Assembly (NCBI GenBank): GCA_037893245.1
Contig: JBAIAA010000659.1
Location: 496,001 to 560,000, forward strand
Direction: 5' to 3'
From: Crossaster papposus
Lineage: Eukaryota; Echinodermata; Asteroidea; Velatida; Solasteridae
Length of the DNA: 64,000 nucleotides
Part shown: positions 23,030 to 61,919 of the stretch, one piece after another
How the letters are laid out: each line of letters starts with the position of its first letter
Position numbering within the stretch: position 1 is the stretch's first letter
The notes under the pieces: generated by a model
What the model saw: only the letters and a program-made list of their open reading frames with translations
Databases searched by the model: none
Told to the model about the DNA's origin: nothing
Program-made: the position numbers and the translations under genes

Positions 23030-26000
23030 GTATTTCTTTTTTCCAGCTTATTCCCACTAATGAAATTCCAGGTTTATAAATTGAGCAACTCTTGATGTTC
23101 TCGTTTTTGTTTTTCAGTGATGGCGATACAGGCAAGAAAGAAGCGAAAACCACCAAAGAACCGACAGAAAAAGAGCGGACCGGCAGCCGTGTCAAAGTGC
23201 GTATAATCAGAAATGAAAATAGGCTTAAAATATAACGTTAGTCCGAGTAAGCTAGGTACTTACCTTGCTTACTAACTTACTTATCTGACGATTGTAAGGT
23301 CCTAGCCGCAGTGGTCCCTTCACATTTAAATCAAATCCCACTGTGCTATTAATTGTTGCCCCCAAAACCCCCCCCCCCCCCCCCCTCAAAATTCACCCTC
23401 AAAATTAACCTCAAAATGGCCACAAAATTATACTCGATAAGCCATCACTTGGAGAGACCAGTAACACATCGTACTCGTAGATTAAAACTAAGATAGCCAA
23501 CTAAGGTTTACTTACGATTCGGATGGACAAAATTCCACTTCTGAACGGAAGGCATGCTACTGCTGGCATCGCGTTGCAAAGTACATGTCCATGAAGAAAA
23601 TGAGATATGTTGTAACATTGGTGGCATGTTTCTGTCACGAAACCCCCCCCCCCCCCCCCCTCCCCACTCCTGACTTCTCCTCCTAGCCCACCCCCTTAAT
23701 TACCCCCCATTACAGTACCTCTCTTAACCATTCACCGAGCCGAGACGTGGGATTATTTTTAACGAAACTCGATCCGAGGCGGGTTCAAGCCAATGGTATC
23801 GGGAAGCACACCCACGCATTTCCGGCCTTGCTCGCTGCTGACAGTGAAAGACATTTCGGGTCTTGCTTGTCACGTGTTTATGCGTCATGTGTTTTGAATC
23901 TCGGACAAACGTTGCGTGTATATACGTCCTCTGGTGTGAATTGGTTAACCCCCCTCACCTCTCTTGACCAGTTCGCGCCGGGATTATTTTAACATCACCG
24001 AGCCGAGGGGCGGGATTATTTTTAACAAAACTCGATCCGAAGCGGGTTCAGGCCGATATTGCCGGGAAGCACAGCACACCCACGCATTTCCCACACCCAC
24101 GCACCCATGTCATCGGCGCGAACTGGTTAACCAGTTCGCGCCGGATAACGTATATAAACGCAAAGTTTCCCCAAATTCAAAACGGATGACGCATAAACAC
24201 GCCAAGTTCAAGTTCGGAAATGTCTGTCAGCAGCGAGCAAGGCCGGAAATGCGTTGGTGTGCTTCCCGGCACTATCGGCCTGAACCCGCTTCGGATCGAG
24301 TTTCGTTAAAAATAATCCCGCCCCTCGGCTCAGTGATGTTCAAATAATCCCGGCGCGAACTGGCTAATAACCCCTCTTGTCCTCTTATTTATTCCTTTTC
24401 CTCTTAATCTCTCTTACTTAAGCCGCGTTCGCATTGGACTTAATATTGTCAAATGTTACGGTACGTGATTGTCAAAGTTCACGGTGTTAAATCCTCCGCT
24501 AGAAGCTTGGGCCTGTAGATCTTACGGTTGCGGATGGTAAAATGGACAATTTGACAATGTTACCGCCTGTCCGCATTGGATTTAATTTGGTTAAGTTATC
24601 TGTAGGTTTTACAAAAAAAAAGTCCAATGCGAACGCGGCTTTAGTTTACCCCTTTCCAGAATGACTAATGTCACCTGGAGGTTAGAATCATTAAGGCCAA
24701 ATAAAAAAACCAAAACATGTTTAGCGTCACCGCCCTCTTTTTGTGAACAAAATGATCAATTTTATTATCTTTAAAAAAAAAGAGAAAACAAAAAAGAGAA
24801 TAAAATTTTAAGATCGTATTTTAGACTTTAGCGTCACTGTGTACATGCTCTGGAAATATGTGACCCAGCACGAGTAAATGAGACACTTTGCGGCAAAAAT
24901 AAAAATTGAGATTTTGATTTCATCATTTAAAGCTTGTTTAGCTTTAAATGATTGAAATCAAAATCTCAAATTTTATTTTTGCCTCAAAGTGTCTCATTTA
25001 CTTGTGCTGGGTCATACATGTATATGTTTTCTAATAGGAAGGCTAGGGTGTGACGTGTATGGTGCATACATGATTGACCCACATGAATTTTGATTTTTAA
25101 TCGTGGGTGAGCCATGTTTTAATTACAAAAAAGAAGATAGGGTGTGACATGTTCACTACATGACCAGCATTAAAATGTGTCGGGCGGCAATTAAAAAACA
25201 TTAACATGTTGGTTTTTTTTTGGGGGGGGGCCTAATATTAATCTTTACAACAGGTGAGTTTTTCCAATACAACAGTATTTTGGTTTTTTACTTTTTGGAT
25301 AGTTGCAAATGGTATATTCCACCTTAACCATCAGGCCATTTCTGCACCAACCATGCAATATCTAAGTATTACGAGCATTAAGCATCAATGTAGAATTTCC
25401 AAAAATCTGTGTTATGTACTGTACATTGTATTCTAAACCAGTAGAACAAGACAATAATAGTCTCATTGTCAACAAAACAGGAATCGCTTCTGTCCTGTTC
25501 TGACGCATACAGTTCGTACACATTTCCTGGTTATTCATACGGTACAACAGTACATGTACACATGTTGTAGCGATAGTATTTTCCTGAAATACTAGAACCA
25601 AGCTTCCAAGCTTACGGAAATCTGTAAAATATGTTAGGAACTGAATCTTGAGATGTGCTTACTCAAGTTGTGCATACATGTACATGTAGTACAGTAGTTA
25701 TTACAGTGTTTTGTATTTTTTCACAGAAATGTTAAGAATACCGTTACTGACTTAACATACATACCGGTATGTACGCACGTGTAGATTCAATGAAAATCTT
25801 ACGGTCAACCATTGCCATCTTCAAAATATGTTAATGTGTAATCCAAATGTTATTTTTCACCCGACAGCCAATTGTTTTTACATTGTCAAAGTTTTTGACA
25901 GGACAAAATTTGCCCTTTTGGTATTTTCTGTCGTGATTTCTGTTTTTGGTATTACCATTTACAGTAATGCGGATTGTGTCTGTGTTTTCAAGAAAAATAT

Positions 26001-29000
26001 GATTCGTGCTGATGTACATCAAAGAAAAATGTTGAGTTAACGAAAATGGAAAGAAAAAGAAAGACATGAGTAAAGGTTGGAAGGTTGAAAAGTACAGTGA
26101 ACTTTGAAGTACCAGCTTGACATGCAATTACCGGTATAATTGTAATGGGTGGATGGTATACATGCAGTACAGTACATGTACCGGTACCGGTAGCGTACAT
26201 CAGAGGAGGGTCACACTGTTTGGGTTTTCTGTGTAGAGCATTGATCCACATGTTGTGCATTGTTAACCCTGACCTCCCAGGCTATCGCACTAGAAAGCAT
26301 ACCAAACCTAACAAACGTCAACAGCTCACAGAGGTTCAGTAATTACTGATACACTGTTCACAGTATTAAACTTTCCATGCAGTGATCTGCCCTCATAGAC
26401 GTACTTGTAGAGTTAACAAGTTTGCGCCAGGATTATTTTGACATCACCGAGCCAACGCGCAGGATTATTTTTGACGAAACTCGATCCGAGGCGGGCTCAG
26501 GCCGATAGTATCGGGAAGCACACCCACGCATTTCCGGCCTTACTCGCTGCTGACAGACATTTCCGGCCTTACTCGCTACTGACAGACATTTCCGGCCTTG
26601 CTACATGTAGTGTCGTATTGATGCGTCATCCGTTTTGAAACTGGGGAAAACTTTGCGTTTATATGCGTCATCCGGCACGAACTGGTTATGCTCTTTTCCG
26701 TTAACATTGATTTGTTTATAATGCATTATGTAGCTCAATTGGGTGCTTTCCAGGATGAAATAATCCTTTAAGATATAAACTTTGTGAGTTACATGCTTAC
26801 ATTGTATTTGTATAATTTGAGTTTATGGGTGCAGTCCGTACATGTACACCAGTACCAGCAGACCAGAACTGGTGAATTGGGGTTGGGTAATACACCCTAC
26901 ATGTATCTTGTCATGTGTAGGTGGTTTTATTCATTGTAATTAAATGTTGTTTGTTCAAAGTTTACTGACCCGCGTCATTTTAGTTCAATGCCATGTCTGC
27001 AGACAATACTGTACAAAATTACAAAAAACTTGACAATTTATGTACATTACATACAATATTTAATGTACAGGTATTATGTTCAAGTCACATTTTGATAATG
27101 GATGCACAACTTATACTGTATGTCTATCAAAGTTAAAAGAAACGAGACCACAAAATTGAAGAAAATCAATTAACCCTCGCAAAATGTAAATTGTCTCCAT
27201 TCAAGTTGGCACTGAACTTTATGCACAATCATTAATCCATTCTCTACATGTATTTTCCTACTAACCTTTTTTTTTCTTTCTCCAAATCATCTGAAACGAA
27301 TCCGTACTGTAATTCCTCCAGTGCCTCGCAGCCTTATACCAAGTACTCTCTCTGCTATTAGTCTTTCCGAGAATTAATTGCTCTGCTAGGAATTTGATCC
27401 TTGTCTCAATATTGTGTCTGCCATTGTAGTAATTATACAAGGAAAGCACGTTATGGGTGTGCGTGTGTGTGCATGTACATGTATACTGTACCGGTATGTA
27501 CTGTATCTAGTACAGTATTGACGGGTACCGAATATATTTTAAAGGTATACACCATTTTCAAACATCAACAAACAAAACTACTTGATTATTATGATACTTG
27601 AAGTTAAACTAAACAGTCTCAAGCATCCTGTGAAATCACGCACGGCACCTGATGTGATGTAGTTAAATTCAAGAAAAGAGAAATTTTGTATCAATTTGTT
27701 AAAACCTGACTATTGTCAAACACTGTCCTCAATTTATTGATTTCGTCTAAAGGAAGTCAAGGAACCATACTGCAAGACAAGCACTTTTTTTCTTGGTTTT
27801 TTCCAGCTTCTATGAACACAAAACTTTAAACAGATCCGCATCACAAAACTTACTATAAAATATGAATCCCTAACCCATCAATTTTCAAACATTACAGCGA
27901 AAGCAAATGCTAACAAATACTTTGTCTAAAGGAGCACAAGTGCATAGTGTGCATAAATTAATATACATGTGATGGGGAAAAAACCAATATACAATTTATA
28001 TGTAAATTCTCCGATAGCACACAAATTTCTTGTTAACGCTTCTGCTAATTACATTCTCTTGTTTATTTAAATACATGTACAAAAATGTTTACGGAATCAC
28101 CAACCAGTTGATAATGTACCGTACATTAGAAAATGCACCTAGAGAAAAAAGCACAAATATGTGGCAGTCTGTCTGGTAGCTGAATTTCCTTATTTTAATA
28201 ACCAAATGTTGAAACACAAGCTTCGTCTGCCATAAGGCATTTCTGAAGATTGCAGACGTCTAGTTGAAGTTTGGGTGTACCCTAATATTAATGTTCAGGC
28301 AGTATTTCACAGAGTGCTGTGCTTTACGATGTACGTGTATCTGTATGTCGTTCGGCCTCGCTAGTGCATGTATATCATCCATTATTATTGCCTGCCTGAG
28401 TCGCTGCTCGGTCTTAATCGAGCGAGACAGTGTATTATCATACCGGGGTACCCTGTGGAATAAGCCTGTTTCTCTCCCGCGACTGCACTTATCACGAGGA
28501 CAGTACGACTAGAAAGCAGAGAAACACCCTGAAATCTTGTTTATACTTCCTCTCCTTTTACGGGGAGAGAAAATGCAGGAGGAACTGGTTTGCTTGATTT
28601 GAATTTTGATTTAGTCAGCTTTGGTTTGAAATTATGCCGCACGTTAATTCCTGTTCTGGCATGTTACAGCTAGAGTCTCGCTCCGTGTACGACTGGCGTC
28701 TCAACTGTTCCCGTCCACTTCTTGAGCGGTGAGTCAGTTGATGGAATTATACAGTGTTTGCCCCTACATGCTTTCCGTTGGGCGTAAAGTAGGAATATAT
28801 TGACTAGGCTTTGCACATGTATACTGGCTGATAGCTTGTACATAACCTGTACAGTGTAGTTGGTTGATATTTATTTATTTGATACATGTACATTTAGTGA
28901 ATGCCAATCGTAATATTATATTTTTCCTACCGAACAAGTACACATGTTGTAGATCATGTACCGGTACATGTATGCGTTGAATGCTATGTACATGTACCGG

Positions 29001-32000
29001 TACATGGATACATCTAATTGCTCGACTATTATTATTATCCCAGTTTAGCAGGCCATTTGATCACTTCTGATGATGCAGAAAACAGTGTCTTCTGTTCTCT
29101 TAACCTCTCAGGTTTAGCCCCATGGATGGAGAGAGGTAATTTTATTGTAGTAAAGTATCTTGCCCAAGAACACACAGGCTTCATCTTGGGGTCAAACCAT
29201 ACATTTGTGCACAATAATTTGTGCATTTTTCATTGGGAGAGGGAAAGGTGATATTATACCTTAATCCTAATGTCCTAAGCATTACATTTAGCTCAAGAAC
29301 TCAGTACAATAGAATAATATTTTGTTGTATCAATTAGGTCTTTCTATAACTGATGATTAAGTGTAATGACAGCAGTGTAAGAGAAATCTGCAAAATGTGT
29401 ATTATACATACGCAGTGAAGGTGCGAAATACCGTACCCTCTGGAGACATGAACACAATGTGTACAATGGAGATAAAACGTCTCCGGAGGGTAAATTTCTA
29501 TAGATGAATAGGTCTCCACTGGGAATTTCACGAATTAGATTTTTGGATTTTACTTAAATTACTCAAAAACTAGGATTAGGATGTGGGTTAGGGTTAGTGT
29601 TTGGGTTAGGGTATAATATAGGGTATATTGGGTCGAAATTTCAACCCAGGAAAAAAATTATGGTTAAAATGGGAGCATTTTGAAAAACGTGCTCGACTTT
29701 CTAACCATTTTGTACACGAGAACAAAGCCATGTCTCCACAGTGATACAAAAATGCGAATATGTGTACACGTACGTGTTACGCAGTGTGAAAAATGTTCTA
29801 AATACATGGGTATACACGTATTTTGTGAAAAAGCTTGTGGAGACCTTTACAACTATAGAAATTACCGTGTAGACGTATTCATTCCCATTGTCATTATTGT
29901 GTTCACGTCTCCGCAGGGTACCGTATTTTCCTCCATGCACAGTTGCATCAGTACAATACATGTACCGTATGTGAAGATATACATGTTATGTTGTTATTCA
30001 GATAATTAAATAAATGTTAATCATTTTTGGTTAAAGTATTTGTATATACACGTGTACCGGTATGTAGAATGCCTAAGCATACATTATACACATGTGTATG
30101 TATCCTTGAAGAAATCCATTAGACTACATAAACCAGCAATTGAAATTCTAATTCCTTTACTCAAATTGTAGTCTGGTCCTGTTAATAAGTGACTTGTGTC
30201 TGTTCAGTTTTAACTGTATTTTGTACATTCCTTCAGGGCCGTAGACCCAGACATGTCCTGCCCTAAACACTTTTCATAATACATTATAATTGAATTAATG
30301 AGTTCTGGCTCGCGCAATAAGCTCTCAGCGTGCTGCATGTCAGGCAATGCAGTTAAGATACGGTAGAATACCCCATTTGCAGATATCGAAAATGTTTACT
30401 AGGAAATTATTAGGAAATATCTTACTTATTTGAAAGTAAATTTTGATTGTAGGCATCCAGCAAAAGAATTTCTCTAGATATTCCTGTAATTGTTACAAAA
30501 AATTGAAAAAAAATTAAAACATCATGATCGTCGGACGTCGATCTCCCCAAAAAACCAAGAACAACATAAGAACCACTGTCTGACTTTGGTTAAAGGCGAA
30601 TGCCATTTTTCTTGCTTTTTTTTAGCATCCATGATTGTAAAACTTTGGACAGGTCAGTTAAACGATATTTACTTTAAAATACAACTCCCCAAATCCACTC
30701 ATTCCTGATAATTCAAGCAATTACCGATGGTGTATACTATCGTACAGGTCTTTAAATTATTATTATTGAATAGTGATTTAACATTTTAAAAACAGCAGTT
30801 TGGGTGGGTGGTTGGGTTCAAAACAATTTAGAAAAAACTATTGAAATTGAAAAACATTGCATATTTTGAATGGCCCCTGAGATCTTAAGAAATTCCTTAC
30901 ATGTACCCCATGTACATGTACATGTACATGTACATAATACCGGTATGGTCTGTAGGTTGTCCCCTAGCATTCCCAAAACCTCTAAATTTAAAGGTAGGAA
31001 ACACCATTGATAATTGCTAGAATTATAATGAATGGGTAGATTTTGGGGGTTGTATTTTATAGTAAACTCGTTTAACTTGACCTGTCCGAAGTTGACAAAA
31101 TCAGGGATGCTGAGAAAAATAAGAAAAACGGTGTTCGTTTTTAACCGGTGTCGGGCATTTTTTTTTTTAAATTTTTTTTTGCAATCGCATTCCGATCAGA
31201 ACAATCACAGTATATCTTGTGCAATCAATTTCCCTAGATGCCTAAAATCATACTTTAAAATAAGTAAGATATTTCTTAATACTTTGATAGTAAAATTTGT
31301 CGATGTCTGAACATACGACTTTTAAAGGTAGGACACACCATTCGTAATTGTTTGAATCATCATGAATGGGTAGATTTGGGGGTGTTGTATTTTATAGTAA
31401 ATATCGTTTAACTGACCTGTCCAAAGTTTTACAATCATGGATGCCGAGAAAAGCACGAAAAACAGCGTTTGTTTTCAACCGGCGTCGAGCAATTTTTCTT
31501 ATGTTATCTTTGTCGGCGATCGGGAATTTTTCTTTATAAAATATTATTTTTTAGAATAATTACATGATACATGTATCTAGCGCAATAATTTTGCTGGATG
31601 CCTAGAATCATTATTTACTTCCAAATGAGTAAGATATTTCTTAATAATTCGGTAGTAAATTTTTTCAATATCTGCAAATGGTGTATCCATCCTACCTTTA
31701 AGTATTTTTTTTCAACAAATAAACCATTTTTAATCCCTTTTAACAAAACTTAAATGCCCAATTACAAAGTTTTGAGGTACGGTACATGTACATGTAAGTT
31801 TTGTCACAGGAACAGGAAAAAATGCCCTACTTTGGAGTTTGGACCTTAAATTAATGACCAATGAAACATAATGCATATTTTAATCCTACTTTGCAACAAT
31901 TATTTTAGAAACTAAGCTATGCTAAGGTACATTTACAATTCATGTTTTACGCATTATGATAATGACACATTACTACAGAGTAGATTGTTCAGTGGTACGA

Positions 32001-35000
32001 TACATTGTTGATTTGAATTAGAATGTATACGTCCTCCGGCGCGAACTGGTTAATGATGTGTATCGAGTTAGGTTGGTCAGGCCAAACCGACCTGAAACAT
32101 GAAAAATAACAACCAAATCCTAACCAAAACCGATCTGAACTCTCCAAACCGACCTTGTCCCGGTAAAACAAATCATGGAAAACTGACCTGAACCAAGGAA
32201 AACCAAACCGAACCCAAGAAATGCATTTTTCAGACCATTCTTCCAATTTAAGCACTTTTAAATTGACAAGTTATCATTACATGTACTGGTATATTAAGAA
32301 TATGATCATTTACAATCCACCTGCTTATACACATATTGCACACATCTGTTTCCAGTTTAGGGATTGCATACATGTACATGTAGTTGTACCCCCTCACTGG
32401 AATGGCATGTCAGAAATGCACAGGTACATCATATCCAATCCATATTTCCCGAGGTCAATAGAATGTGGTATTTACAGTCATCTGCATGATATTTTTTTTT
32501 TTTTAAAGATCAGTCGCATTAATGTGACAAACTTTGACTAATAGACCTGAGACCTAATACCATACACTTTTCTATGGGAGCGAAGTCGGGACGCCAGACA
32601 AAGTAGGGACAGCCATGCTCATGTGAAAGCACTCGTGTAAACAAAGCGTGACGTCATTAGGTCTTGAGCCTAAAATAAGCTAAAATGTCTGACTTTTAAA
32701 CTAAGATATTTCTGGATTCTGCAGAACAAGAGCTTTCCAATGTACATGTACAGTGTATACAACACTATAGCCGTGTTCGCACTGGACTTTTTTGGGGGAA
32801 GGTTTTACTGAGACGATGGTAAAATAAAAAATGGTCAAATGTTACCACTGTTCGCACTTGGACTTTCGACACTGGAAAATTTTACCGAGACCGTGGGAGA
32901 AGTAGCCAAGCTGTCATTATAATGACTCGTGAGGGCGCTTTGTGTAACCTTTTTGCATTGACCCCAGTGTACCCATTCGCGATCGCGCGTGTTTTTTTTT
33001 CTCGATCAAATCATTGACGCCATGCCATCGTAGGTACGGTATTGCATCCGTTGTCGTGCTTTTTTTCGTCGTAAGACACGTTGACGTTCTTTATTATCAT
33101 TTGGAAATGATGCACTGGTAGCACCAATCAAACTTCCGACTGTATCAATAATAATATCTGCCATAATATTGACCAAAGGAACCCCAACTCTACGTAATCT
33201 TTTTGCAGAACCACGTGCGAATGTGATCACGATGCGCGTGCCCGCATGTAAACAATGCAAAGAGCGCATGCGCAGTGCCTTGTATAGCGTGACCTTGCAC
33301 TGGAGGGCCAGGTGGATGTTTTCCTGGGACGCTTTTACCGAGTCGCGCTGTTCGCACTGGACTTATCGTCTAGGGAAAAGTGACCAGGGACGTTTTCCCG
33401 AGCAGCAGTTGGCCGGTAGAAGTACCCACTGGACTCGGGAGAAGTACCTGAGAGGAAAACGTCCTAGGCTGTCCGCACTGGACTTAAAATGGGAAAAGGA
33501 CCCATCGTCTAGGTATGTTTTATCATTTTAAGTCCAGTGCGAACAGGGCTTAAGGGGTACTGAGTTCAGTAACGGAAATATGGACCACCAACTTTACTTG
33601 AATTCGTAATTTAAAACGGATTTGTGAGAAAAAGCCAGGCGTTTAAAAATCTTGCAGTTTGTGTGCACAGTCAACTCTTCCTTGCAGGATAAAAAAGGTT
33701 TTAGAGACATTTTACAGAACAAAAAATAGAGAAAGGTGCATGTAGCACGCGAGTTGCATACATGTAGAGATTAAGATTTACTTTTAAAAAAATGTATTGG
33801 ATTTCACCCACTGTTCTGCAAAATTGCCATTTCTGACTTTCAGCTTATTTTGTGGTGACAGGTCACAATTATACGTGTGTATATTGAAACAATCTCCAAC
33901 ATCAAAAATGAAATACATGTAAGGGGTTTCAGTTGTTAATGGTACATGTAGTATTGGTAATTGCTTGAATTATCAGGAATGGGTTAATTTAAGGATAGGA
34001 TACACCATTGGTAATTGCTTGAATTATCAGGAATGGGTTAATTTAAGGATAGGATACACCATTGGTAATTGCTTGAATTATCAGGAATGGGTTAATTTAA
34101 GGATAGGATACACCATTGGTAATTGCTTGAATTATCAGGAATGGGTTAATTTAAAGGTAGGATACACCATTGGTAATTGCTTGAATTATCAGGAATGGGT
34201 TAATTTAAAGGTAGGATACACCATTGGTAATTGCTTGAATTATCAGGAATGGGTTAATTTAAGGATAGGATACACCATTGGTAATTGCTTGAATTATCAG
34301 GAATGGGTTCATTTAAGGATAGGATACACCATTGGTAATTGCTTGAATTATCAGGAATGGGTTAATTTAAAGGTAGGATACACCATTGGTAATCGTTTGA
34401 ATTATCAGGAATGGGTTAATTTAAGGATAGAATACACCATTGGTAATTGCCTGAATTATCAGGAATGGGTTAATTTAAGGATAGGATACACCATTGGTAA
34501 TTGCTTGAATTATCAGGAATGGGTTAATTTAAAGGTAGGATACACCATTGGTAATCGCTTGAATTATCAGGAATGGGTTAATTTAAGGATAGAATACACC
34601 ATTGGTAATTGCCTGAATTATCAGGAATGGGTTAATTTAAGGATAGGATACACCATTGGTAATTGCTTGAATTATCAGGAATGGGTTAATTTAAAGGTAG
34701 GATACACCATTGGTAATCGCTTGAATTATCAGGAATGGGTTAATTTAAAGGTAGGATACACCATTGGTAATCGCTTGAATTATCAGGAATGGGTTAATTT
34801 AAAGGTAGGATACACCATTGGTAATCGCTTGAATTATCAGGAATTGCATTTGCGCAGATTGCGCAGACACAAACATTAAATGCTAATTGTGGGCGTATCG
34901 GCTTCTAAAACGTACTGTATAGAATACAAAAACAGATAAATAGGCATACAAAAGCAGTACAAAGTTTTGAGTTTTCCTTAGGTTTGTGCACAAACATGGA

Positions 35001-38000
35001 TGCGCCTAGCAGGCATCACTTTGTACATCGAGCCAGCGCTCTAGTAATTAAATATACCTCTATGCCTTTTCCACACACCTGTGATTTTCAAATCAGAAAT
35101 GCATAGTGTTGCACTCCTGATCACAGCTTCCATCTTGTTTTCTTTTTTTTATAAACCCTTTTGCTTCATGGCCCACAAAAAGCTCTAATGGCGAACTAAT
35201 CGTGATTTGATCGCCTGGGCAATGTTAAACTACATGTACACATACTTGTACATGTACATGTACACTTGTATACTGTACACACTGTATTTACTGACCCGAT
35301 GCATCCTAGTTTGTACTATCTTACTAAAATTTCAAAAGTATCTGTCTGTTTGTGTGTGTTTCTGCCCGTAATTTAAATATCTCCAGAATATTTCATAGAG
35401 CTGCTAAGCAAAAAAAATTGCTTAGCTCAAAAAGTCTTGCTCATTAAAAACAGGTTACCAGCCAAAATTATCTGTGTTTTTCATGCTAAGCAAAAAAACA
35501 GCTGTTTATCAATCCAGAACAATAAAGATCACGTGAAAATTTGGTCTGTAACCTTGTTTTTGCCAAGGACAAATTGTCATGCTAAGCAAATGTTTGTGCT
35601 TAGCAGCTCTATGAAATTGGCCCCAGGTGTATTGCTCAGGACCCAAGAATGTGCAGGGCCAAGTTTGAAGTTGTCGGGATGAGCGGTTCTCACAAAATTC
35701 CAAAAAGCAGTATTACCCCACTGGCAAACATGGCAGTACAATAACAACCATGGTCTATTGCACATTTTAAACGTGCACTGCAGTATTACAGTACCTTCAC
35801 ACGGGTATAGACCGTCACGCATATAGACCGTCACGCATGCAATGGGGCGTGATCTAATATGCAAATTAGATGCATTCATTATCAGTGTTACCAAAATAGC
35901 TCATCCCACGTACCCATTATGATCAAGATGAATGACTTCCCTAGTATTTCCTGTCCCAGGAAAGTGGCAGGTGCAATTACATTAGTGAAAAGAATATCCA
36001 GTCTCCGTTCATCAACACTACTTGTGCCTGATGTAGACGTAGATGGTGCTTTTTGTATTACTTTGTAGAGCCCCAGTTGGTATTTAACACTGAGTACATC
36101 TTCTTCCTCTTGTACATGACGTTATGGGGACATTCCATATGTGACCCGCTCCATCGTAATCAGGAATAAGTCGCTGAGGCCGTTTTACGCAATCGGCCAT
36201 TAAAGTATTATTATTATTATTCATGGTTTATTATAATTCAACTTGGTTGCCAAAAGCAAAATTACATTGAATTCACAAAAAGTATTACACATTATAGTAT
36301 AAAATAAAATTCATAAAAAGTTAACAATATTGAACATTAAAATAATCTTTAGACAGATTAAAAAAGGTTACTCAGATTTACAAATTACAACCCAAATGAG
36401 ATGTTATAATTACAATTAGGCATTCTATGGTGCGACAGTATAAACAATCTACCCAAACGGTGACGTCTGCAAATAAGGGTTAAAGACAGCTTTCATTTAG
36501 TAGTTTTACCATGTAAGGAATTGCACTGTTAGCCTGTCTCTGGGTGCGTACTTTTGGAATGGACAACAAATTTGAGTTTCTTAGACAGTGGCTATTACTT
36601 TCTCCTCTGGTTTTTGGAAGCCAATTCCGAAATTTATTGCAACTCATCAAAGACTTAGCAAATTTAAGGCAAATGTCATAGCGGCGTTGTTTCAAGTCCT
36701 TTATTTTACACACCTGCAGGGCATGGTGATATGACATGTAATCATTACCTAAGATAATTCGACAGGCTCGTCTTTGTATGCATTCCAAAGAGTTATGTTG
36801 TTTAATAGTAAGACCTGGGTGCCAGACAGGGACAGCATATTCTAGCAATGGTCGAATGAAACCAACATAAATGGTGATGAGGTCTTTGATCGGAAGACCA
36901 AATCTTCTGAGGGTGGTTAGCATAAATAACCGTCCACTTGCTTTACGTATAATGTCATTAATATGTATATCCCATTTAAGATTATTGGTCACTTTAATGC
37001 CAAGTATTTTGAGAATACCACTAGTATGAATTTGTTGGCCAGAGAGTTGTAATGGAACAAAGGGAGTAGGATTCTTAGCAAAGGTGATATCCATAGAAGA
37101 ACACTTTGCTGGGTTTATTAGCATATTATTTTCTGCCGCCCATAAATCAAATCGGTCAAGAACCTGTTGCATATTGCTATTTCCATTAAAAGTTGTGTTC
37201 TCGATCAAAGTTAGATCATCTACGTACTTAAGGGTGTGATTGCAACTCTCACTTGGCACTGCTGCATCGTTTATCATAGTGAGAAAAACTGCAAGGCCTG
37301 TAAGAGTTCCTTGGGGGACGCCAGCTTGAAGGGTTGACCAACTTGAGAAGGAATCCTGATATCTAACGCATTGAAGTCTGTGCGAGAGGAAGTCGGCGAT
37401 CCATGGGACAATACATGGCCGAGCCCCTATGTCCAGTAATTTGGTGATTGCTATATTATGGTCCACACGATCGAAAGCTTTACTGAAATCAGTCAGGGGG
37501 GAGTCAGGTTGGCGTAGCGGTTCTTTCCTCGCCTTCCACCACTATGACCTGGGTTCGAACCCCGCCTGGGCCAATATGTGGATTGGGTTTTCAGTCCCTG
37601 CCTGACTCCGTGGGTTTTCCCCAGGATATTCTTCTGGGGTTTTCCTCCCACCTCTAAAACTGTACCTTCTTCTCATTGTCTTCTCTCAACTGAGGGCCCC
37701 AAATGATCAGCTTCTGCTGGATGGGTTACCCTCAATAAAGATGGTTGTAAATAAATAAATAAAAAGCTTTACTAAAATCAGTGACAACTATACGTGTAAG
37801 ACTTTTTGGTTTATCTGCATGTTGAAATGCATTGTTCAGGAGTTTAACCAGGTAGTGGGTAGTTGAATGACCTTTCCTGGATCCGTATTGATTATGGTCA
37901 ATGTGAGATTCAATGTCCTCCATGAGCCATCCAATGACGAATGATTCCGCAACTTTGGCAAAATGATCGGTTAATGAAATAGGTCTGAGTTGATTCCACG

Positions 38001-41000
38001 TAGGGGGATTGGATTTAGGTACTGGAACGACAACTGCTTTCTTCCACTGAGGAGGAACAACTGATTGCTCAAGTGATGCATTGAGAATGTCCGTCAGGGG
38101 CAAGCTTAATTCACAAGCAAACTCTCGTATTATCTTCGCATGGGTGAAAATTGTGACCAAGTCGATTTTCTGAGCATTGTATTTTTAGGAAGTGCAGTTA
38201 TCACAGATTATTGTCGTTAATGTCTTGTATGTAAAAACAATCAATAAAGATGAAAATAAAGAGGATTTGTGTGCACTGTCCGTATGATTTTGGTCGATTT
38301 TGTTTATTTCAAAGCTGTTTTTCTCGGAATGTGGATTTGGCAAATAACTAGACACTTGCCATCTTTTTCAGATCATAACTCGTTAACCGAAACAGATACA
38401 CACTTGTGATGGGTATCATTAGAAAGCTTATGAAATTCCCTTTCTCACCATGTGCATATCTCAAAAAGTCATTTCGAGACTTATTCCTGATTTCGATGGA
38501 GCGGGTCACAAATGGTTTGTGAGCTTAAGGAAAATCTCTCTGATACTCAAACCCTAAAAACTCTCTGATACTCAAACCCTAAAAACTCTCTCGACACAAC
38601 ATTTATAATATCGCCCTAACATGTCTACTATATTTCCTTTCATTATACCCTAACCCAAAACCACCTCTAGACCCCTTTACTCGAGACCAAAAATGTTATG
38701 GAGACAGGAAATATCCCCACAACTCGGTCAGCTTTTGTCAAACAAAAGAATGCCTACCCACACACATCTCTTGACATACTTACAGGGTACCAGTACATGT
38801 ACCGGTACATGGCATGTACCCCTATATTTAGAGAATAACAGTGTGAGGACCCGGTCTTCACTGCGGGATAATGACTGGGTTGTTGGATGGCTGCTCTTAA
38901 CCCGGTCATTATCACGCAGTGGAGACTGGGTCCTCGCACTGCTAATCACTTTAATAAATATATCTTTTTAACCAGTTCGCGCTGGGATTATTTTAAATGA
39001 AACTCGATCTGAGGCGGTTTCAGGCCAATGGTACCCGGAAGCACACCCACGCATTTCCGGCCTTGTTCGCTGCTGACGGACATTTTCGGCCTTGTTCGCT
39101 GCTGACGGACATTTCCGGCCTTGCTCGTGACGTGTTTATGCGTCATCCGTTTTGAATCTGGAGAAAACTTTGCGTGTATACGTCCTCCGGTGCGAACTGG
39201 TTAATGATGTGCATCGAGTTAGGTTGGTAAGGCCAAACCGACTTGAAACATGACAAATAACAACCAAATCCTAACCGAAACTGATCTGAACTCTCCAAAC
39301 CGACCTTGTCCCGGTAAAACAAATCAAGGAAAACTGACCTGAACATACGAAAACCAAACAGAACCTGACAAAAAATCTGAATATCTGGCTTGGGCAATAT
39401 GTCATATTTTTCACAAATGTTTGTGCCAGTAATTACCCACATTACCCACATTGAAAACCTGAAGTTGGGCTCTGTGTTACGGGTCCTGACGACAGCAGAG
39501 TATTCTGTCCGAAACGTTGAGTTTCCTCCAGTTTTTTCAGAGCCACACATCTAACTAAAAACTGTTTCAGATTATTTTGGTTTATTTCGGGGTTTTCAGA
39601 AGATGTCCTAATTGACTCGACCCGACCCAAAAATTGCAAGCGCAAAACCGAAAACTCGTTTAACTGACCTGTCCGAAGTTTTACAATCATGGATGCCGAA
39701 AAAATCACGAAAAACAGCATTTGTTTTCAACCGGCGTCGGGCAGTTGTTCTTACCGGTATGTTATTATTGTTTTTTCGCGATCGCCGGAATAATTACAGG
39801 ATATGTAGCGCAATAATTTTGCTGGATGCCTAGAATCATTATTTACTTTCAAATAGTAAGATATTTCCTAATAATTCGGTAGTAAATCTTTTCAATTTCT
39901 GCAAATGGTGTATCCTACCTTTAAGTGATAAAGACAAAATGCTTGTTTTTTGTTCATAAAGAATTGTTTGATAATGGGTATACATCATGTGGGTAGGCAC
40001 TCACCGCGTTAGGGGGACAGGCTCTTTTGTTTGGAAAAGACAGACCGAGTAGTGGGGACATTTTCGAGTCCCCATAGCGCGTTGGGTGTTCAGTACGAGT
40101 AGTGGGGACATTTTCGAGTCCCCATAGCGCGTTGGGTGTTCAGTAAAGGTAGAACAAGGTAAAATCGAGTTAGGGTATAATGAAAGAAAATGAAGAAGAG
40201 GACAAATTAGGGTGATCCTGAAAATTTTTAGAATTTTAGAGTGTTCCGAGTTTGAGATTAGAGAGATTTCAGTTTACACACAAACCCTATGGGTTGTCCC
40301 CATAACACTATGTACAAAGAATAGGTGTACTTGCATGTTTTTCATTGTTGAGATGGTGTTGATAGCCTTCAAAAGCTCAATCCTTTGGCAACAATGAAGC
40401 TGTCAAACTACGCACACCTCAAGCAATGAAGCGAAGCAAGTTTTAGCCTAGTGATAGCCTTTTAATGAGATTAGCAACAGTAGCAATCAATTCTAATCTA
40501 ATTTCCAGGCTAGCAAATTATTTGGAGCCTTTTCCCCCCCAGTCCTTGAATTGAAAAAAAACTGTTGTCCAGTATTAAACAAGAATAGTTCTGGTTTTGA
40601 GATCAACAGAGTTGCAAAAAGGTTTGCTTTTATTTATTTTTGCGGTGGGGGACAAACATGTCTAGAGGGCACAATTTATTACAATGGTGATAAAGGTCGT
40701 GCTGAGTTTATGCCTCCATGGTTTATGCAAGGTGCAGTTATAATTCCTGAATGACAGTGCTTGTAAACTTTTTAGGGGGGGTGGGGGGTGAGGGGTTGCT
40801 GGTTGCTGGTAGTCTCTTTTTATTGGTCCACTGCCAGACAAGTATCAGCTTTTTGACACCTGACTGATGAATATTCATATCTACCGGTAGTTGTCGAATC
40901 ATCAGGAGTTAGAAACAAGCACATATTTGTGGAAGAGCCATGTGGTTGGTCAGTAAATTGCCAAAATCATGTCTCCTCTCCACGCAGTGTATAAAGACAG

Positions 41001-44000
41001 CCAGAAAGTACTCGTTTCCTGAGGGAATGCCTGTTTTATGAGACCTCTGTTGCAGTGTGGATTTCAGACCAAGTCTGGGAAAGTTAATACCTGTAGCTTT
41101 CTTAAATGGTGGTAAAACTTATTGTTTTATGTACCAAGAAGTTCCCGGATGCTGAACAAGGCTCATGATCATGATGTAGGTTGTAACAGTCTGCGAACTA
41201 GTTAATAAAATGGTCATGCTCAGTTGAAGGGCTCAGACGAAACCCGTTCATCAAGTTTGGAAGTCCTGCACCATGTCCTGTCCTTTCTTCTCTCACATTT
41301 TGTTACCGTCCACCAGATACCGGTACTCCTTTTCAATTTCTATTGTCTGAATAGTTTTGAAAACTGTTTGGAGTGGTTCTGCCTCTGGGTTCAGGAATTT
41401 AGTTTGTTCATGGGACAGAGAATTCTGATTGTTGCATCGTGGGGCCAGTGGACCAGAACTGCACTATGCCCTACATACTGACTGAGGAAGGCCCTTACTA
41501 TTGGCTCACCTCCACAGAAATCATGTAAGTTTGGCTGATTTGTGTGTACATGCGATAAAAAAGTTTACTGTGTTGGGGATGTCTGCTCATTGTCATGTAC
41601 AAGTCTACTGTCTACATCTAAGAAAACTTACAACTTTCAAGTAGTTGTATTGTGAAAAGACCTTTAATCATTTTGCTATGTATACTATGTACAAGTACGT
41701 ACATGTAGGATACCATGCAGGCCTTGCGCTAACTTTTTTTCCTGGATAGCCCACTGGGCTAGCAAACTGCAGATTTTACTAGCCCGTTTACATTTTCGCT
41801 AGCCCGTATGTACAATGCACAAAACTATTCGTTCGGCGCGGGCACGTACACGTACCGGCGCGGTACGTACAATAATGTACATGTACAGTGTACATCCGTA
41901 GTAATGTACACAGAGGGCGCTGTTCTGAACAGACTCTTTATCAGGCGCTACTACTAGTACTAGTGACACGGCAGCACGCTCATGTACTATACAGCAACGC
42001 AGTGGGCCGTTATGCTAAGAAAGGCTGAACGATGTGAAAGAGAATAGTGCACATATGTGCGGTACCCTGCGCCGTAGTTTATACTATACTAATCTTACTG
42101 AAGCCCACCAGTCTACTCTATTCGTGAGATCGCAATGCACTGCATGCACGCGTGGATCGAGCGCTCCCAGGCTATCGATAATCATGCCGAAAAACACAAA
42201 CAAAAGACAGTTTATACTCGGTTTATCTTGATCCGATATTTATTTAATACACAAAAAAACAATACAAATTTTAACATGTATTTTGATCTAAACATTTACA
42301 GGTACATGTAGGTTACTGAATTTTTCACTAGCCCACCGGGCAACCAAGGAAGTGGGTCTGGTTAGCCCGGAGCTGTTTTCGCTAGACTTTGTACGCCGGG
42401 CTAGTAATATTTCGAGGCCTGCCATGCTGGCATACCCAATTTTTACAGTGTTTCCCCATAGAATCCTCAAAACCCATCACCTCAAAATCCATTTTGCAGT
42501 ACTGCACATTCGCGCAGTACTGCTAGGCTTAAAATCCTGAATACATCATATTCCCCCAGTTTGTTCAAATATGGAGCCTAACTCCTCCAAAACAGTGGAT
42601 TAATTTTGATGGATTCAGCTACATATATACGTTAAAGGTAGGATACACCATTTGCAGATATCAAAAAACTTTACTACCGAAATATTAGGAAATATCTTAC
42701 TTTTTTGAAAGTAAATAATGATTCTAGACATTCAGCAAAATGATAGCAGTAGATATCTTGTAATTGTTCAAAAAAATTAAAAAAATTACGATCACCAGAC
42801 GACAATCGCGATAAAAACAAGAACTACAAGAACAACTGACCGACGCCTGTTAAAAACGAACTTTTTTATTTCGTCTTTTTTCGGCATCCATGATTGTAAA
42901 ACTTCAGACAGGTCCGTTATTATTTACTATAAAAATACAACCATCCAAATTCACCCATTCCTGATAATTTAAGCAATTACCAATGGTGTATCCTCCCTTT
43001 AACCTTCAAGAATTTACCAAAATCCTTATCAAACAAGCAGGGAATTCAACAAATTGAGGCTGTATGGTGAAATTTTGAAAATGAGATGGTTGATTTTGCC
43101 TGATGCATTGTGTCAAGGTTACAGCTGTACCTTGTGTTGTTTGTGCTTAGTGTGCATAAATTTAGGCCTAGATAATAAATTCTCCCCACTGCTTCTGAAT
43201 ATCACATGCACTGCCTCAACATTATCAACAGTTATTGATTGTTGGAGGATTTTGCAGCAGGATTGAGGTACAGTACATGTACATGGGTTGGTCATCTCTG
43301 TCATTTTACACGTAGACAGTTGGAGAAAAAAGTCCAGGGGTTAGGGTTAAACAATGGCAGATGAGGTGTAAGTTAAAAGGTAAGATGTATACACCATTTG
43401 CAGATAACGAATTATTGAGAAAAATCTGACTTATTTTAAAGTAAATAATGATTGTAGGCATCCAGCAAAGTGATTGCGCTAGATTCTGTAATTGTTCCGA
43501 AAAATTAAATTTTATAAAAAAATAAAAAGTGTATCCTACTACTACCCTTATTCTGCCAGATCCAGCACAGTGCATCTGTGGTGACTGCTTGACCTTGCTG
43601 GGCTCTGCACACAAGTCAATGTGACAAAGTATGCAATCTGTTGCTCTGGCAGGGTTTCTAGCCGGGTTTCTAGCCAAAATACCCTGGAGGGTTAGGGTTA
43701 AAATTTGAAGAAGGAATAAGCAAGGGCAAGTTTTGTCTGGATTTTCCAGGACCTTACGATTTTAGGGTTTCTTTGCCCAGCACTTTAAAACATCTATTGC
43801 AGAAGCAGAAGGTTCCCAGGACACAAAGAATTGATAACCAGTGTTTTTCCTCCCTCCAAGTTGAAGTTCTTGCAGTAACCCAAGATCAACAGTGTAGTTT
43901 ATTCAGTGGTTTCTCTGTTGCAAATATTTATCTTTGGTTGCAACATTAATAAAATCAGTGAACAGAAGATTTGGACAAGCGAATGGGTCCTGTCAGTTTG

Positions 44001-47000
44001 TGTTGACACCAAACTTACTTAGCACATGGTTCAAGAGAGGTCACCCAGGTTTTTTTTAAGGGACTCCCTGCACAAGAGGAGAGCCACAATTTACACCATA
44101 TCATCATTTGTCAGTGGAACTAGAATTATTTTTTTCAAAGTTGTTGGATTTAGTACCTGGTGCTGGAGTCAGGGTTCTAGCCACAGTGGGCGGCGCCGGG
44201 CGGTACCGCCCGGCACTGCAAATTTCCGCCCGGCTCTTGGGTTCAAATTGGCTGTGCCGCCCGGCACAAAAAAAAGAGAGGAGATACGAAGTCACGTTAA
44301 TCATGTTCATGTAGTAATTTATTTTATTAACTCATCTAGACTTTCACAGAAACATGCGAAAATGAACTGGACCCCCAGCCGTGAGGCGCGAGAGCTCCGC
44401 TCGCTGCGCTCGCAACGCTTCGCAATCTGATAATTTACCCGGCACTAAAAAGGTCCTAGCTAGAACCCTGCCTGGAGTGTTTTGTATATGTTTTGTATAC
44501 GAGTCCTTTTTTTTTCTTCATGGAAACCCATTTGGACCATATTTTTTTAACATAATTTTTTTGGTGGATTTGGAGAGATTGGTCCTGCAGGTCCAAAGTG
44601 AATACATTTTGATTGGTTATGATGGACTTGGGCCAGGAGGCCTGAATCACTGCTGGGGGAATCAGATTCACAAGCAAAGTGAGTGATGGATTTTGGCGGA
44701 GTTGGTCCATTACTTAGTAAAAGGCAGCAGGTAGTTTAATAGGGTTAAAGAAATGCTGTAACTGTATTTGTTTCTAATTATTAAAGATTTCATTAACATA
44801 AATACCATTTAAAATGTCTTTACATAGCTTGACATACCGTAGTTGGGGGGGGGGGGGGGGGGGGGGGGGGTGTTATTGGAATCCTGAAAGTGAAAGAAGG
44901 GGAGGGGGTACAAGAGAGGGGTGGGGGGACAAGAGAGGGGGGGGGGGGACAAGGGGGTACATGTAGGCCATACATACGGTTAAGTTCGGCCAACCCATTT
45001 TCACACCATTGTACATGTACAGGCGAGTGTTATTAACCAGTTCGCGCCGGGATTATTTTAACAACGCCGAGCCGACGGGCGGGATTATTTTTACTGAAAC
45101 TGGATCCGAAGCGTGTTCAGGCTGATAGTGCCGGGAAGCACACCCACGCATTAACGGCCTTGCGCGCTGCTGACATACATTTCCAAACTTGAACTTGGCG
45201 TGTTTATGCGTCATCCGTTTTGAATTTTTGAAATTTTTTGCGTTTATATACGTCATCCGGCGCGAACTGGTTAATAAAATATTTTTTTTTTTCAGTTAAT
45301 GAAACCATGGATTCCCTAAAAGTGCCCTATGCACTAGGTAGTTCGCAAGCCTGAAGAAACCGGTACAGATAAAAGACAATGAGAAAAATATCCCAGAAGA
45401 ATATCCTGGGGGGGAAACCCTTGAATCAGGCACGGACTGAAAACTGAATCCACATATTGGCCCAGGCGGGGTTTGAACCCGGGTCACAACACTTGGTGGA
45501 AGGCGAGGAAAGAACCGCTATGCCAACCTGACTCCCCCTAGTGTATACGATACACCTTGCCTAGCCATGGTTGATGAGACCAAGTTATGCAAACAGTGTA
45601 CCTGTGTTGATCTCACTAGGGGCAGGCAAGACGGACGGCGTGAAAAGGCCTTTGGATGCAAATGGTGTTGTACAAGTTCAGTCCAGGTACATTGTGTAAT
45701 TTAAGCCAGTCTGGAAACACCAAGTGACCGTGTATGGAATACTGGCTGAGGGCCGCTGGGACGTGATAATTGGGAAACGTGAGAGTATCACTATCACAGG
45801 TCTAAGGGTTCAGTTCATAACCTGTAAAGAGGGAACTCTGTTCGTTCTCTTGTTAGTATCTCCATGTAAAGGTACACTACGTCTACGTAAATGTAGCTCC
45901 TTCAGCTGTTTTACTAGGAAACATTTTGGCTCTGCTTACCATTAGCAAAAAATCTCTGCTTTGCAGAAGAAAATTATATGCATACGGTAAGCGTATTTCA
46001 GAAGTTAGCAAGGAATTTTGGTTTCCGCGCATGTCCACATTGCACATCCTGTTAAAATAATAGATTCTGAAGTTTACTTTTTTTAAATGTCACTGATGAA
46101 TACGGTACCTGCACAGTTTACCAAACTTTTTGTTCTGGTACAGAATTTTTTTAAATTACTGATTTTAACCCTTTTCTTTCTCTGGGTGACAGTTGTCGAC
46201 AAGAAAATCCCCCCCCCCCCCCCCCCCCCTCACCTCTACGTCAGTCAATAAAGTGGTAAACACTGGTGTCGCATACAATTTGGTCTGCTATGAAATCTGG
46301 TCCCTTTTGCCCTTTTATTGGTTGAAACTTCACGGCATGCGTAATATATCGTACATTACTACCATTGATTCCATTTCATAGTACTACCGGTACATGTACT
46401 TACCGGTACATTGTACGGTACATGTACGTGTAGATTTACACTACACCTGCACCACATTGCGCTATACATGTAGGAATACCCATGTCAATCTATAAGAAGA
46501 TTTTTAGTAGAACCACTCGAGGCATATACCGTAAAAACAAAATATGACTAATAAATGAACCTTGCATTCGGCTAAATGTCATTATCACTGTCCAAGCCCT
46601 GAGCTGGTATGGATGCTGATCAAAACCTGTCATGTGACTTCTGCCTAAAGCCAATCGGAGGCTGTCGTTTCATTATGTATTTCACCCAGTGGGGTCGTCT
46701 GGTGACTTCATGTCAGAGAACTACCGTAGTCAAAATGGTCGTTTTTCAAAACAAGGTGAGCTGGTTGGATGACAGACATCACTTCTATTAGGTGCATGGT
46801 GGGGGTCTTTCTCTTAATATCCCCCTTGGGTTGACCCAATTGCTCAACTGACATATTTCTCTGACAGTAATCGTACATTTCAGCATCATTCCGGAGCCTG
46901 AACTTTCTCAACCCGTTTTCTGGGAAGAAGTGGGTTGACCCCAACTTACATTTTACATGTAGTTCGAACAACTGGAAAGGATTTGAGTAAAAATTCCACC

Positions 47001-50000
47001 CCTGGATCACTTTTTAGAATAAGGTTGCGGGTCGAGACTGGTATGGGACCCTTTGAACGCCCTGATGACTGGATCGCAGTGTTCCTGGTTGTACAGTTTT
47101 GGAAATGTTTTTGGAAACTCTTTCGGCCCAAAATGCCTGTTGGGAGATTGTGCCTCTTCAAGACTTGCAGGTACGGTACATACATGTGTAGATTTATTGT
47201 GAGGCGTTCTGGCAAAATGAGGCATAACTGGCAGACGTCTGCATGTGTTAAGAAAGAAAATAAGATTCTCTTTAAAGTACTGTTCGTTGCACTTTAATCA
47301 GGCATTCCGTTGACGAGTTATGCCTGTTTAAAGTTTGTATTTTGGAAATGTCGAACAGTAACGGGGAAAAAACCTGAGTAGTTCTGTATGTCTATATTTG
47401 ATTTTGATATTGTATATTTTATTCCACAATAGACATACAGACAAATTCTATTATTTTTTTTTGCTTGTGTGAATAGATATAAAAATTGTAAAAATTGGTT
47501 TCCCACTTCAACACAAAGGGATTTACGCAGTACAAATGCAGTAGATATGTACCGGTACATGTACATGAACATGGGTGCACATGCAAAACGCACAGTAATG
47601 TACATGTATAATGTGGGTCAATGACATTTCAGTAGTGTTTTTTTATAAGGGATCATATTTACAGTGTGTACATATTAGAGTACATATTCATTATAAACAT
47701 GAGTGTCTTGAGAGGATTGTGAACAAACAAAAGTTGAACCTACATGTACATGTAGGTCCCAACGCAACATGTGAGACATATTTTTGGTGTTGAAAGCGAT
47801 TGAAAGTTGAAAGCGAGTTGAAAGCGATTATTCTACAGTACATTTGTACTTGTCCACTTGTCCGCTGTTTGCTCAAGATTAAATATCTGATGTGACTGGC
47901 AAAACCCATTGTTGAGACTCGAACACTAGTGATTCAACAGCTCCAACAATGGGACAGGCGATAGGGATGGTATGGGGTTCCCACCAACGGTTAGATAGTA
48001 CATGTAGATACAACGTTTTACTCGTCATCTGTCCATGAACATGAAGTAAAATACACATACATCTGTTTGTCTGCATGGTCCATTGCATCTATTATGTATT
48101 TGGTCCACACATGGAGCAAGGGTTATGTACATTTTCTGGGAATTTGGTTTTTATCCTGATTCGTGATAGAGCGCTTTGATGTACACGTGTTTGTGAAAAT
48201 CTTATCGTTTGCATTGAGTCAGTCCGGAGGTTGGGTTAAAATTGAAGACCTGTACATGTACGTTTGATTAGGGTTTGGTCATCAGCAAGCACATGTACAA
48301 TGTATGTAATCATTTCAGCCAAGGTGTTGGGAACAGGACATGAATGATGTATGGATTTTGTGTTATAGGGTGAGTAAAACACTGAACATTCATGTAGGCT
48401 TTTTAGTATTCTTATACTTTTCCTATCTTGCTCCTTAAGTTTTATTACTTTTTTTTCCTTTGAAATTCTAACCCTTTTCTATTTTGCCTGCCTTTTTGTC
48501 CCACAGTCTAAAAACATATAATCACATTGGATATTTGTCATAATATACCCGGTACATGTTACACACTGTTCACACAATTAATGGCTTCGGTGCACAGATC
48601 CACAAATTTGTATCCTTGTGGAGACATCTCTTTGTTTTCTTGTTTCTAAATTCTATAACCTGAGGAGACTTAAACACATTGGGGACAATGGAAGTCGAAA
48701 GGTTTCCACATAGTCATTTATACAGATGAATACGTAGGTCTCCACAAGAAATTTCATGAAATAGATTTTTGCAATTTTACTTAAATTACTCAAAAATTAG
48801 GATATATGGGTTAGGGTTAGTGGGTAGGCATACATACGTACACCGAGTTGTGGGAAATTTTGTGTGGGTCTCGAGTAAAGGGTTCTAGAGGTAAAATTGG
48901 GTTAGGGTATAATGAGAAAAAAATGAAGACAAAATAGGGTGATTTTAAACAATTTAGGTGGAAAGATTTTTTAGAGTTTTAGTTTAGAGAGATTGTCATT
49001 AAGCACACGAACCCTATACAATGTCCCCCCTGATGTCATGTACTAAAAGAATGTGTGTTTAGGTTAGGGTATAATATAGTGTATATTGGATCAAAATTTC
49101 AACCCAGGAAATTGATTGTGGTTGAAATATAGGAGCATTTTGAAAAACAAGCTCGACATTCTAACCATTTTGTACACGAGCTGTTCCGGTACATACATGT
49201 AAGGTGTTAACAACCTTGTTGTGTACACATTGCTATACATGTATCTCTTGAATTTACAGCATGTTCTTGTTGCTAAGCTTACAGCTATAAATCGGTTAGG
49301 ATTATAATTGTAATTGATAGAGTGTGCGCATAAGTGTTACCGGTAACACATCGCAGATACCATGTACTGTAAGTCTCACTAGCTCACATTCACTTTTTCT
49401 GTGTGTCTTGGTACCAAACACTGACTAGTCTAGTTACAGACTCCCGTGTTTGAATTTACTAAACTGTTTGATTGATTGAACGGAAGCCTAGGTAAACAAA
49501 TAAAATGTTATAATACATACTGTACTAAATCATAAATTTGCAGTATTTTCGATATGTTGTAAATGGAAATGATTTAATTTTATTATTCTTTTACAATACC
49601 CATTTATCTTCCTTGACCATTCATGATGCAAATAAAATGCATAAAATATTATCCTTGACACATTGAAGAGATAGTCACGGTACCCAGATGTAGTGTATTC
49701 TTATAGAATCTGGCAGGATTTTGAGGTCAACTTACACCTGCTCTATTGAATACTGGGTACATACAGTACATGTGGAGGGCCTGTTAGAGTAACTTGCAAC
49801 TAACTGAACTTTAGGCTCATAACAAAGGAATAGCAATATGTGTGGGATATGAATAAATGGAGTGGAATCGGGTATTATCTGATCTGAAAAGAAAGATACA
49901 CATGTACATAATAACAGGAAGTGGTTTTTCATAGAAAAAGGAAAACCCAAAGGACTTTAGGACTTTTGTTGTCTGTGTTTGAGTCATCAAGTTACAATGT

Positions 50001-61916: not shown

Positions 61917-61919
61917 TTA

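What the first reader, a model, noticed from the sequence alone, without database searches (positions are those of the whole stretch)
33950..34846. A 54-bp satellite apparently born from the terminus of a MITE
The unit equals the first about 48 bases of the AGGTAGGATACACCATTGG transposon family plus a TTAATTT joint, and each junction rebuilds the family's TTAA target site. About 16.5 head-to-tail units with no opposite terminus, and with a repeated three-unit block (units 9-11 equal 12-14), show amplification after capture of one end. This is a snapshot of a transposon end becoming a tandem array inside an SRPK intron.
Basis: seen in the sequence. Interest (0 to 1): 0.8.

Follow-up and report, generated by a model that had tools for sequence, protein, structure and literature searches.

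The report
Transposon-end repeat array, spread genome-wide
A tidy block of 54-letter repeats in a probable gene intron is made of copies of one end of a small jumping DNA element, but it does not look newly born there: similar blocks sit at dozens of other places in the same genome, often inside copies of that element.

Summary
The array is real: 33953-34844, 16.5 head-to-tail 54-bp units, 96% matches, no indels. The unit is the left end of a TTAA-flanked MITE; the ancestral unit matches the left end of the copy at 56557(-) at 49 of 49 bases.

The "birth snapshot in this intron" is not supported. The window's 1.02-Gb assembly has such arrays at 38 other loci among the 40 of 591 candidates scored. 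The standard junction occurs 2,689 times exactly, reversed control 0. Of 54 runs examined, 25 reach the MITE's R end, 15 of these with an exact left TTAA. The window run has no MITE body or R end.

The TTAATTT joint is a local variant. The common junction is TGGAT|GTAA: MITE positions 50-54 joined to a mutated TTAA. The window's exact junction was found in no other tandem array. Homologous locus pairs have 10/21, 6/9, 12/7, 8/8 and 11/11 units.

Best reading: a MITE lineage whose left 54 bp was duplicated once or a few times, was spread by transposition, and grew and shrank by unequal exchange; the window array is an incomplete derivative. New member of a known kind.

The parts
33953..34844 (+). 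54-bp tandem array, 16.5 units, each the left end of the TTAA MITE; clean repeat starts at unit position 19 and ends at position 46
34421..34744 (+). Three-unit block repeated once: units 9-11 (34421-34582) identical to units 12-14 (34583-34744)
33936..33952 (+). Left flank; weak resemblance to a decayed outermost MITE terminus (TTAATGGTA...), 2% of random window positions score as high; inconclusive
   Evidence: best of 11 flank comparisons p 0.026; TTAA near the expected place
56169..56557 (-). MITE copy whose left end matches the ancestral unit 49 of 49
42632..43002 (-). Full MITE copy of the same CAGG left-end type, 47 of 49
31322..31701 (+). Full MITE copy, TTAA at both ends, left end single
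61917..62602 (-). MITE interrupted by a second MITE (62228-62517) inserted at its internal TTAA
62228..63370 (+). Three MITE copies with 371/372-bp spacing; the middle one (62599-62889) is a recombinant of the outer two
23197..61077 (+). Probable SRPK intron that holds the array (donor and acceptor phase-compatible)
   Evidence: upstream exon identity recalled

Best explanation
The array is an incomplete member of a dispersed family: a TTAA-targeting MITE lineage whose left terminal 54 bp (TTAA plus 50 bp) became a tandem array. Inferred founding step: a duplication joining MITE position 54 (GGGTGGAT^TT) to position 1 (TT^AAAGG) through 2-3 shared T's, followed by a TTAA-to-GTAA change in the internal copy that most arrays examined inherited. 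Inferred spread: elements carrying the array moved to new TTAA sites using a transposase supplied in trans. Shown: arrays of 2 to about 116 units; 25 of 54 runs continue to the MITE R end, 15 of them with an exact left TTAA; unit number differs in 3 of 5 homologous locus pairs, as unequal exchange would give. The window copy has no MITE body or R end, and its left terminus is lost or decayed; it carries a private TTAAT|TTAA junction and is fairly uniform (units differ by 4.1%; 8th lowest of 36 runs, median 7.8%, first unit dropped). It probably does nothing for the SRPK gene (inference, untested).
For: Genome search with 311 bp of the array: 130 matches, 40 of 591 candidates scored, in the window and 38 other regions (all 38 fetched). 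Standard junction 30-mer: 2,689 exact, reversed control 0. R-end 24-mer: 8,741 exact, control 0. 54 runs from 51 of 53 sequences: exact left TTAA plus R end 15 (10 in one continuous match, 5 by a separate match up to 700 bp on); R end without exact left TTAA 10 (L021 gives two of these runs). GTAA in 36 of 38 similarity-chosen loci, although the query had only TTAA junctions; a fresh duplication of an intact end would give TTAA, so shared GTAA points to common descent. Unit divergence within loci 10.7%, between loci 10.6%; 8.2 versus 9.4% in 16 loci that I picked for R ends. Nearest-neighbour units are same-locus 48% versus 4.6% shuffled: local duplication also occurs. Homologous pairs: 10/21, 6/9, 12/7, 8/8, 11/11. 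The window's TTAAT spelling recurs in 12 of 635 other units at 6 loci, two homologous pairs among them.
Against: The window junction TTAAT|TTAA was found in no other tandem array and is 3 substitutions from the family consensus, so an independent birth at the same T-rich microhomology is not excluded; L018 (7 of 7 junctions) and L015 (10 of the 12 shown) are also TTAA-type. Equal divergence within and between loci would also follow from many near-simultaneous births from near-identical ends, so the shared GTAA is the stronger argument. The 38 loci were chosen by similarity to the window array and the 13 of contig C1 by the GTAA pattern: proportions are not genome-wide rates. Left TTAA was required for the class of 15; 9 of those 15 show an exact TTAA on the right, and two pairs (L017/L043, L046/L047) are homologous, leaving 13 distinct. 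No empty site or transposition event was seen.
Confidence: 0.8

Rival explanations
1. One reading: the window array was born here, from one captured MITE end, independently of other arrays.
For: Junction spelling found in no other tandem array; ancestral unit matches a MITE end 49 of 49; TTAA at all 16 junctions as a fresh duplication would give; weak trace of a terminus at the left edge.
Against: Same period and same breakpoint as arrays at 38 other loci; TTAAT spelling and some other window variants occur in units elsewhere; no MITE body beside it.
Confidence: 0.12
2. Nested insertion: a MITE inserted at a TTAA at position 55-58 of another copy, and unequal exchange then expanded the 54-bp spacing.
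For: MITEs here do insert into each other at TTAA (62228-62517 inside 61917-62602) and do recombine into tandem copies.
Against: None of the 14 left ends listed has TTAA at 55-58; most read TTGG there. Most junctions examined are GTAA.
Confidence: 0.08
3. The 54-bp repeat is older, and the MITE took its left end from it.
For: Some runs show neither MITE body nor a clear left terminus (2 of 54 by the lax rule, L015 and L081; the window is close to this).
Against: The repeat contains the 21 bp (TTAA included) shared with the otherwise different R end; its consensus is of one left-end type (G at position 42 in 571 of 651 units), carried by 4 of 12 single left ends compared in the window; over the same 45 positions those left ends differ by 12.3% and window units by 4.6%.
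Confidence: 0.03
4. Assembly artefact inflating a local repeat.
For: No reads could be examined.
Against: Units carry distinct variants in an ordered pattern, and comparable arrays occur on many contigs.
Confidence: 0.02

Closest known systems
T2-MITE / Xmix and Xstir repeats in Xenopus (Kolobok-type, TTAA)
   Same: TTAA target, AGG-starting ends, tandem repeats riding on a MITE (PMC6004289 and PMC12628747, passages only)
   Different: Xstir is described in those passages as an amplified internal segment; here the unit is the extreme end including the target site. The terminal motif here is AGGTA, not AGGRR.
Tetris TIR-220 (Drosophila virilis)
   Same: Tandem repeats related to the terminal inverted repeat, kb-size arrays, allelic unit-number difference (PMC4079207, abstract and section 19)
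   Different: Foldback element with repeats inside its TIRs behind a unique outer domain; here repeats at one end only, and the outer end itself is the unit.
Galileo long TIRs
   Same: Tandem repeats in the element end region; extra transposase-binding sites there (PMC3688188, passages)
   Different: Binding was shown there by experiment; nothing is known here. Different superfamily (P element).
CMITE tandem arrays in corals
   Same: TTAA MITEs forming tandem arrays (PMC2872659, passages)
   Different: Whole elements in tandem, piggyBac-type CC[C/T]T ends.
miDNA4 MITE satellite in Xenopus
   Same: MITE carrying an array of variable unit number that can end as an array without ends (as described in PMC12628747; the original paper was not seen)
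   Different: Tc1/mariner type with an internal, captured repeat.

Membership tests
MITE (short non-autonomous DNA transposon) | Short, high copy number, terminal inverted repeats | tested here: met
   Copies of 290-390 bp in the window, 21 bp (TTAA included) shared by both ends; 8,741 exact R-end 24-mers
MITE (short non-autonomous DNA transposon) | Target-site duplication | tested here: met
   TTAA at both ends of 31322-31701 and 42632-43002; nested 62228-62517 duplicates the host TTAA
Kolobok superfamily, T2-MITE type | TTAA target and RR terminal bases | tested here: met
   Ends begin TTAA-AGG; criterion from PMC6004289
Kolobok superfamily, T2-MITE type | AGGRR terminal motif | tested here: not met
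   AGGTA: fourth base T, not a purine
Kolobok superfamily, T2-MITE type | Matching autonomous element with Kolobok transposase | not tested
   No transposase search was made
piggyBac MITE | CC[C/T]T terminal motif | tested here: not met
   Ends begin AGGT; criterion from PMC2872659
Foldback element | Tandem repeats in both long inverted repeats | tested here: not met
   36 R ends found, 0 tandem R pairs within 130 bp; the sample was chosen for left-end arrays
Satellite DNA | Many head-to-tail units, kb-size arrays at some loci | tested here: met
   About 116 units, about 6.3 kb, at C1:779476-785758 (worked out from the hits); the window array is minisatellite-sized
Satellite DNA | Heterochromatic blocks | not testable with these tools
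   No cytology or chromosome map

The most novel reading that the evidence does not exclude
The left-end array is an adaptation of the transposon: each unit keeps the presumed transposase-recognition sequence, while internal units have lost the cutting site (TTAA to GTAA) and the outermost keeps TTAA. The array would be a one-sided bank of binding sites that raises end recognition without allowing internal cuts; arrays without R ends, such as the window's, would then be decoys that titrate transposase.
Probability: 0.08. Interest if true: 0.6.

Novelty: new member of a known kind. Interest (0 to 1): 0.35.

Why it matters
One assembly holds a series from single-end elements through 2-unit elements (L076) and R-end-bearing elements with many units to arrays of about 6 kb. 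That makes it possible to ask whether transposon-derived satellites are born often, or once and then carried. Here the evidence leans to one or few births plus transport. It also shows how a single window can mislead: the array looked like a local birth because the rest of the genome was not in view.

Tried and rejected
Flank similarity to the MITE body: none beyond chance in 400 bp left and 600 bp right; anchored tests left 2%, right 14% or worse; left flank against 11 MITE flanks, best p 0.026: dropped as inconclusive. Joint from MITE flanking DNA (TCAGTTAA before 56557): considered, displaced by the TGGAT|GTAA family junction. Open frame through the array (318 aa): a 54-bp stop-free unit; its three Pfam matches have no stretch passing alone; rejected as coding. 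Viral contigs with the junction 26-mer: 0. The one non-window hit of the window junction (C373) is an ordinary R end beside host GGGTTAA. An allelic copy was sought with the right flank: among the 40 of 1432 candidates scored only the window matches in full, and the others are a common repeat at about query 43-220; the left-flank search did not complete. The count of TGGAT|TTAA junctions did not complete. A reverse-transcriptase ORF was searched to place the organism: two of the 120 listed hits name a species (Asterias amurensis, Patella caerulea), none close; species unknown. My first label 'naked' for 12 runs was too strict: a recheck found a shifted or decayed left terminus, a region edge, a further unit or some body for 10 of the 12, the window's weak trace included; that lax rule has no chance control.

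Full report
Observation. The array spans 33953-34844. In the TTAA frame the unit is TTAA plus 50 bp. Unit 0 is clean from position 19, fifteen whole units follow, and the last is clean to position 46. Variants are ordered: AGGTAGG or GGATAGG at positions 5-11, C at 28, a type with A11 and C31, and two private changes; units 9-11 and 12-14 are identical.

The MITE family. The window holds 18 copies or fragments by my count of the rows, several of 290-390 bp, with TTAA at their ends and two different sides after a shared 21 bp (TTAA included): a left side (CCATTGGTAATTGCTTGAATTATCA[G/T]GAATGGG) and a right side (CCATTTGCAGATATC). Over 45 positions, the twelve left ends compared (two pairs identical through a tandem duplication) differ by 12.3% on average and the 15 window units by 4.6%; the ancestral unit is identical to the left end at 56557(-) over 49 bases and shares G at position 42 with 4 of those 12 ends. 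Outside the array, no left end recognised in the window is followed by a second unit at 54 bp.

What the genome shows. The window is C659:496001-560000 of a 1.02-Gb assembly. Searching it with 311 bp of the array gave 130 matches, with 40 of 591 candidates scored; they fall in the window and in 38 other regions, all of which I fetched. I added the 13 further places on contig C1 in the list of exact standard junctions and one on C373. Of these 52 regions plus the window, 51 held a run of at least two units, 54 runs in all (L078 and L084 had none; L021, L037 and L074 gave two). By a strict rule: exact left TTAA plus R end 15, R end without it 10, body 7, left end and body 3, left end only 7, neither 12. 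The window run is in the last class. Of the 15, 10 reach the R end in one continuous match and 5 by a separate match within 700 bp, which could in part be a neighbouring copy. A laxer reading of left edges leaves 2 of 54 runs (L015, L081) with neither body nor any trace of a left terminus; the window then counts as a shifted TTAA without body, but that rule has no chance control and the window's own trace is weak. Run lengths were 2 to 111 units, median 10.5. The longest, on C1, runs from 779476 to about 785758, about 116 units; the printed 124 also counts an isolated left end 420 bp further out.

The junction. The common spelling is GGGTGGAT|GTAAAGG: 2,689 exact copies of a 30-mer, 0 for the reversed control. 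GGGTGGAT is the MITE's own sequence at positions 47-54 (consensus TGGGTGGATTTGGGGGG), so no foreign joint is needed: position 54 is joined to position 1 across shared T's, and the first T of TTAA has become G. In the 38 similarity-chosen loci 36 have GTAA and 10 have TTAA junctions, 401 against 51 junctions. The window's TTAAT|TTAA is a variant. Its exact 26-mer occurs 7 times in the window and once elsewhere, where it is an R end next to host DNA. TTAAT at 50-54 occurs in 12 of 635 other units at 6 loci, TTGAT in 30 units at 18 loci, so intermediate spellings exist.

Birth or transport. Recent separate births would make units closer within than between loci. They are not: 10.7% and 10.6% over all loci, homologous pairs not collapsed, or 8.2% and 9.4% in 16 loci picked for R ends. 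Many near-simultaneous births from near-identical ends could also give this, so the shared GTAA carries more weight. Nearest neighbours come from the same locus in 48% of cases against 4.6% for shuffled labels, so local duplication continues. The window's 15 whole units differ by 4.1%, 8th lowest of 36 runs. Five homologous locus pairs have 10/21 (left flank 96.6% alike), 6/9 (left 94.0%), 12/7 (right 95-97%), 8/8 (both sides 97%) and 11/11 units (97% and 99.7%) (the 12 is, splits it in 6 and 4). Whether they are alleles or duplicates was not settled. The simplest account is one or few founding duplications, transport by transposition, and unequal exchange in place.

Recombination of this family in the window. 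At 62228-63370 a MITE sits inside another at an internal TTAA, and the middle of three direct copies (62599-62889) equals its right neighbour for 142 of 142 bases and then follows its left neighbour with few differences. That is a recombinant between neighbours and shows that copies of this family recombine unequally.

Classification. TTAA plus an AG start fits Kolobok-type elements; AGGTA departs from the AGGRR motif given for T2-MITEs (PMC6004289, passages), and the ends are not the CC[C/T]T of piggyBac (PMC2872659, passages). No transposase was sought.

Known relatives. A review lists terminal inverted repeats among recorded sources of satellites (PMC9659126, passages), another describes MITE-borne arrays that lose their ends (PMC12628747, passages), and Tetris and Galileo have repeated end regions, with binding shown for Galileo (PMC4079207 abstract and section 19; PMC3688188 passages). 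No title in the listings names this family, but the species is unknown, so it may be described under a name I could not search. What seems less usual is that the unit is the extreme end with the target site, on one side only in the sample.

Limits. Loci were not a random sample; thresholds decide unit counts and classes; the left-flank search and the count of TTAA-type junctions did not complete by the server; no reads and no related genomes were available.

Noticed in passing
62228-63370: Three MITE copies spaced 371/372 bp; the middle one is a recombinant of its neighbours, and the first lies inside another MITE at an internal TTAA.
   Followed up: yes
2183-2258, 26529-26599, 39052-39127: A similar 29-bp unit, 2.4 to 2.6 copies each, at three places (CATTTCCGGCCTT... 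or its reverse complement): perhaps another element carrying a small tandem repeat.
   Followed up: no
34887-35064: A roughly 180-bp repeat beginning 42 bp after the array, 84-89% identical at 39 other places (40 of 1432 candidates scored).
   Followed up: partly
50330-50863: CCCTAC hexamer array, 88.5 copies.
   Followed up: no
52471-52545: tRNA-Thr (CGT) on the minus strand.
   Followed up: no
16812-18746 and 36483-37541: Two reverse-transcriptase ORFs (PF00078), the first 645 aa long without a stop.
   Followed up: partly
19644-19928: Exon with the start of an ING-family PHD finger, plus strand, upstream of the probable SRPK gene.
   Followed up: partly
5259-5564: Minus-strand CCCH zinc-finger reading frame.
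   Followed up: no
33345-33549: Inverted repeats around TTCGCACTGGACTTA, perhaps another small inverted-repeat element.
   Followed up: no
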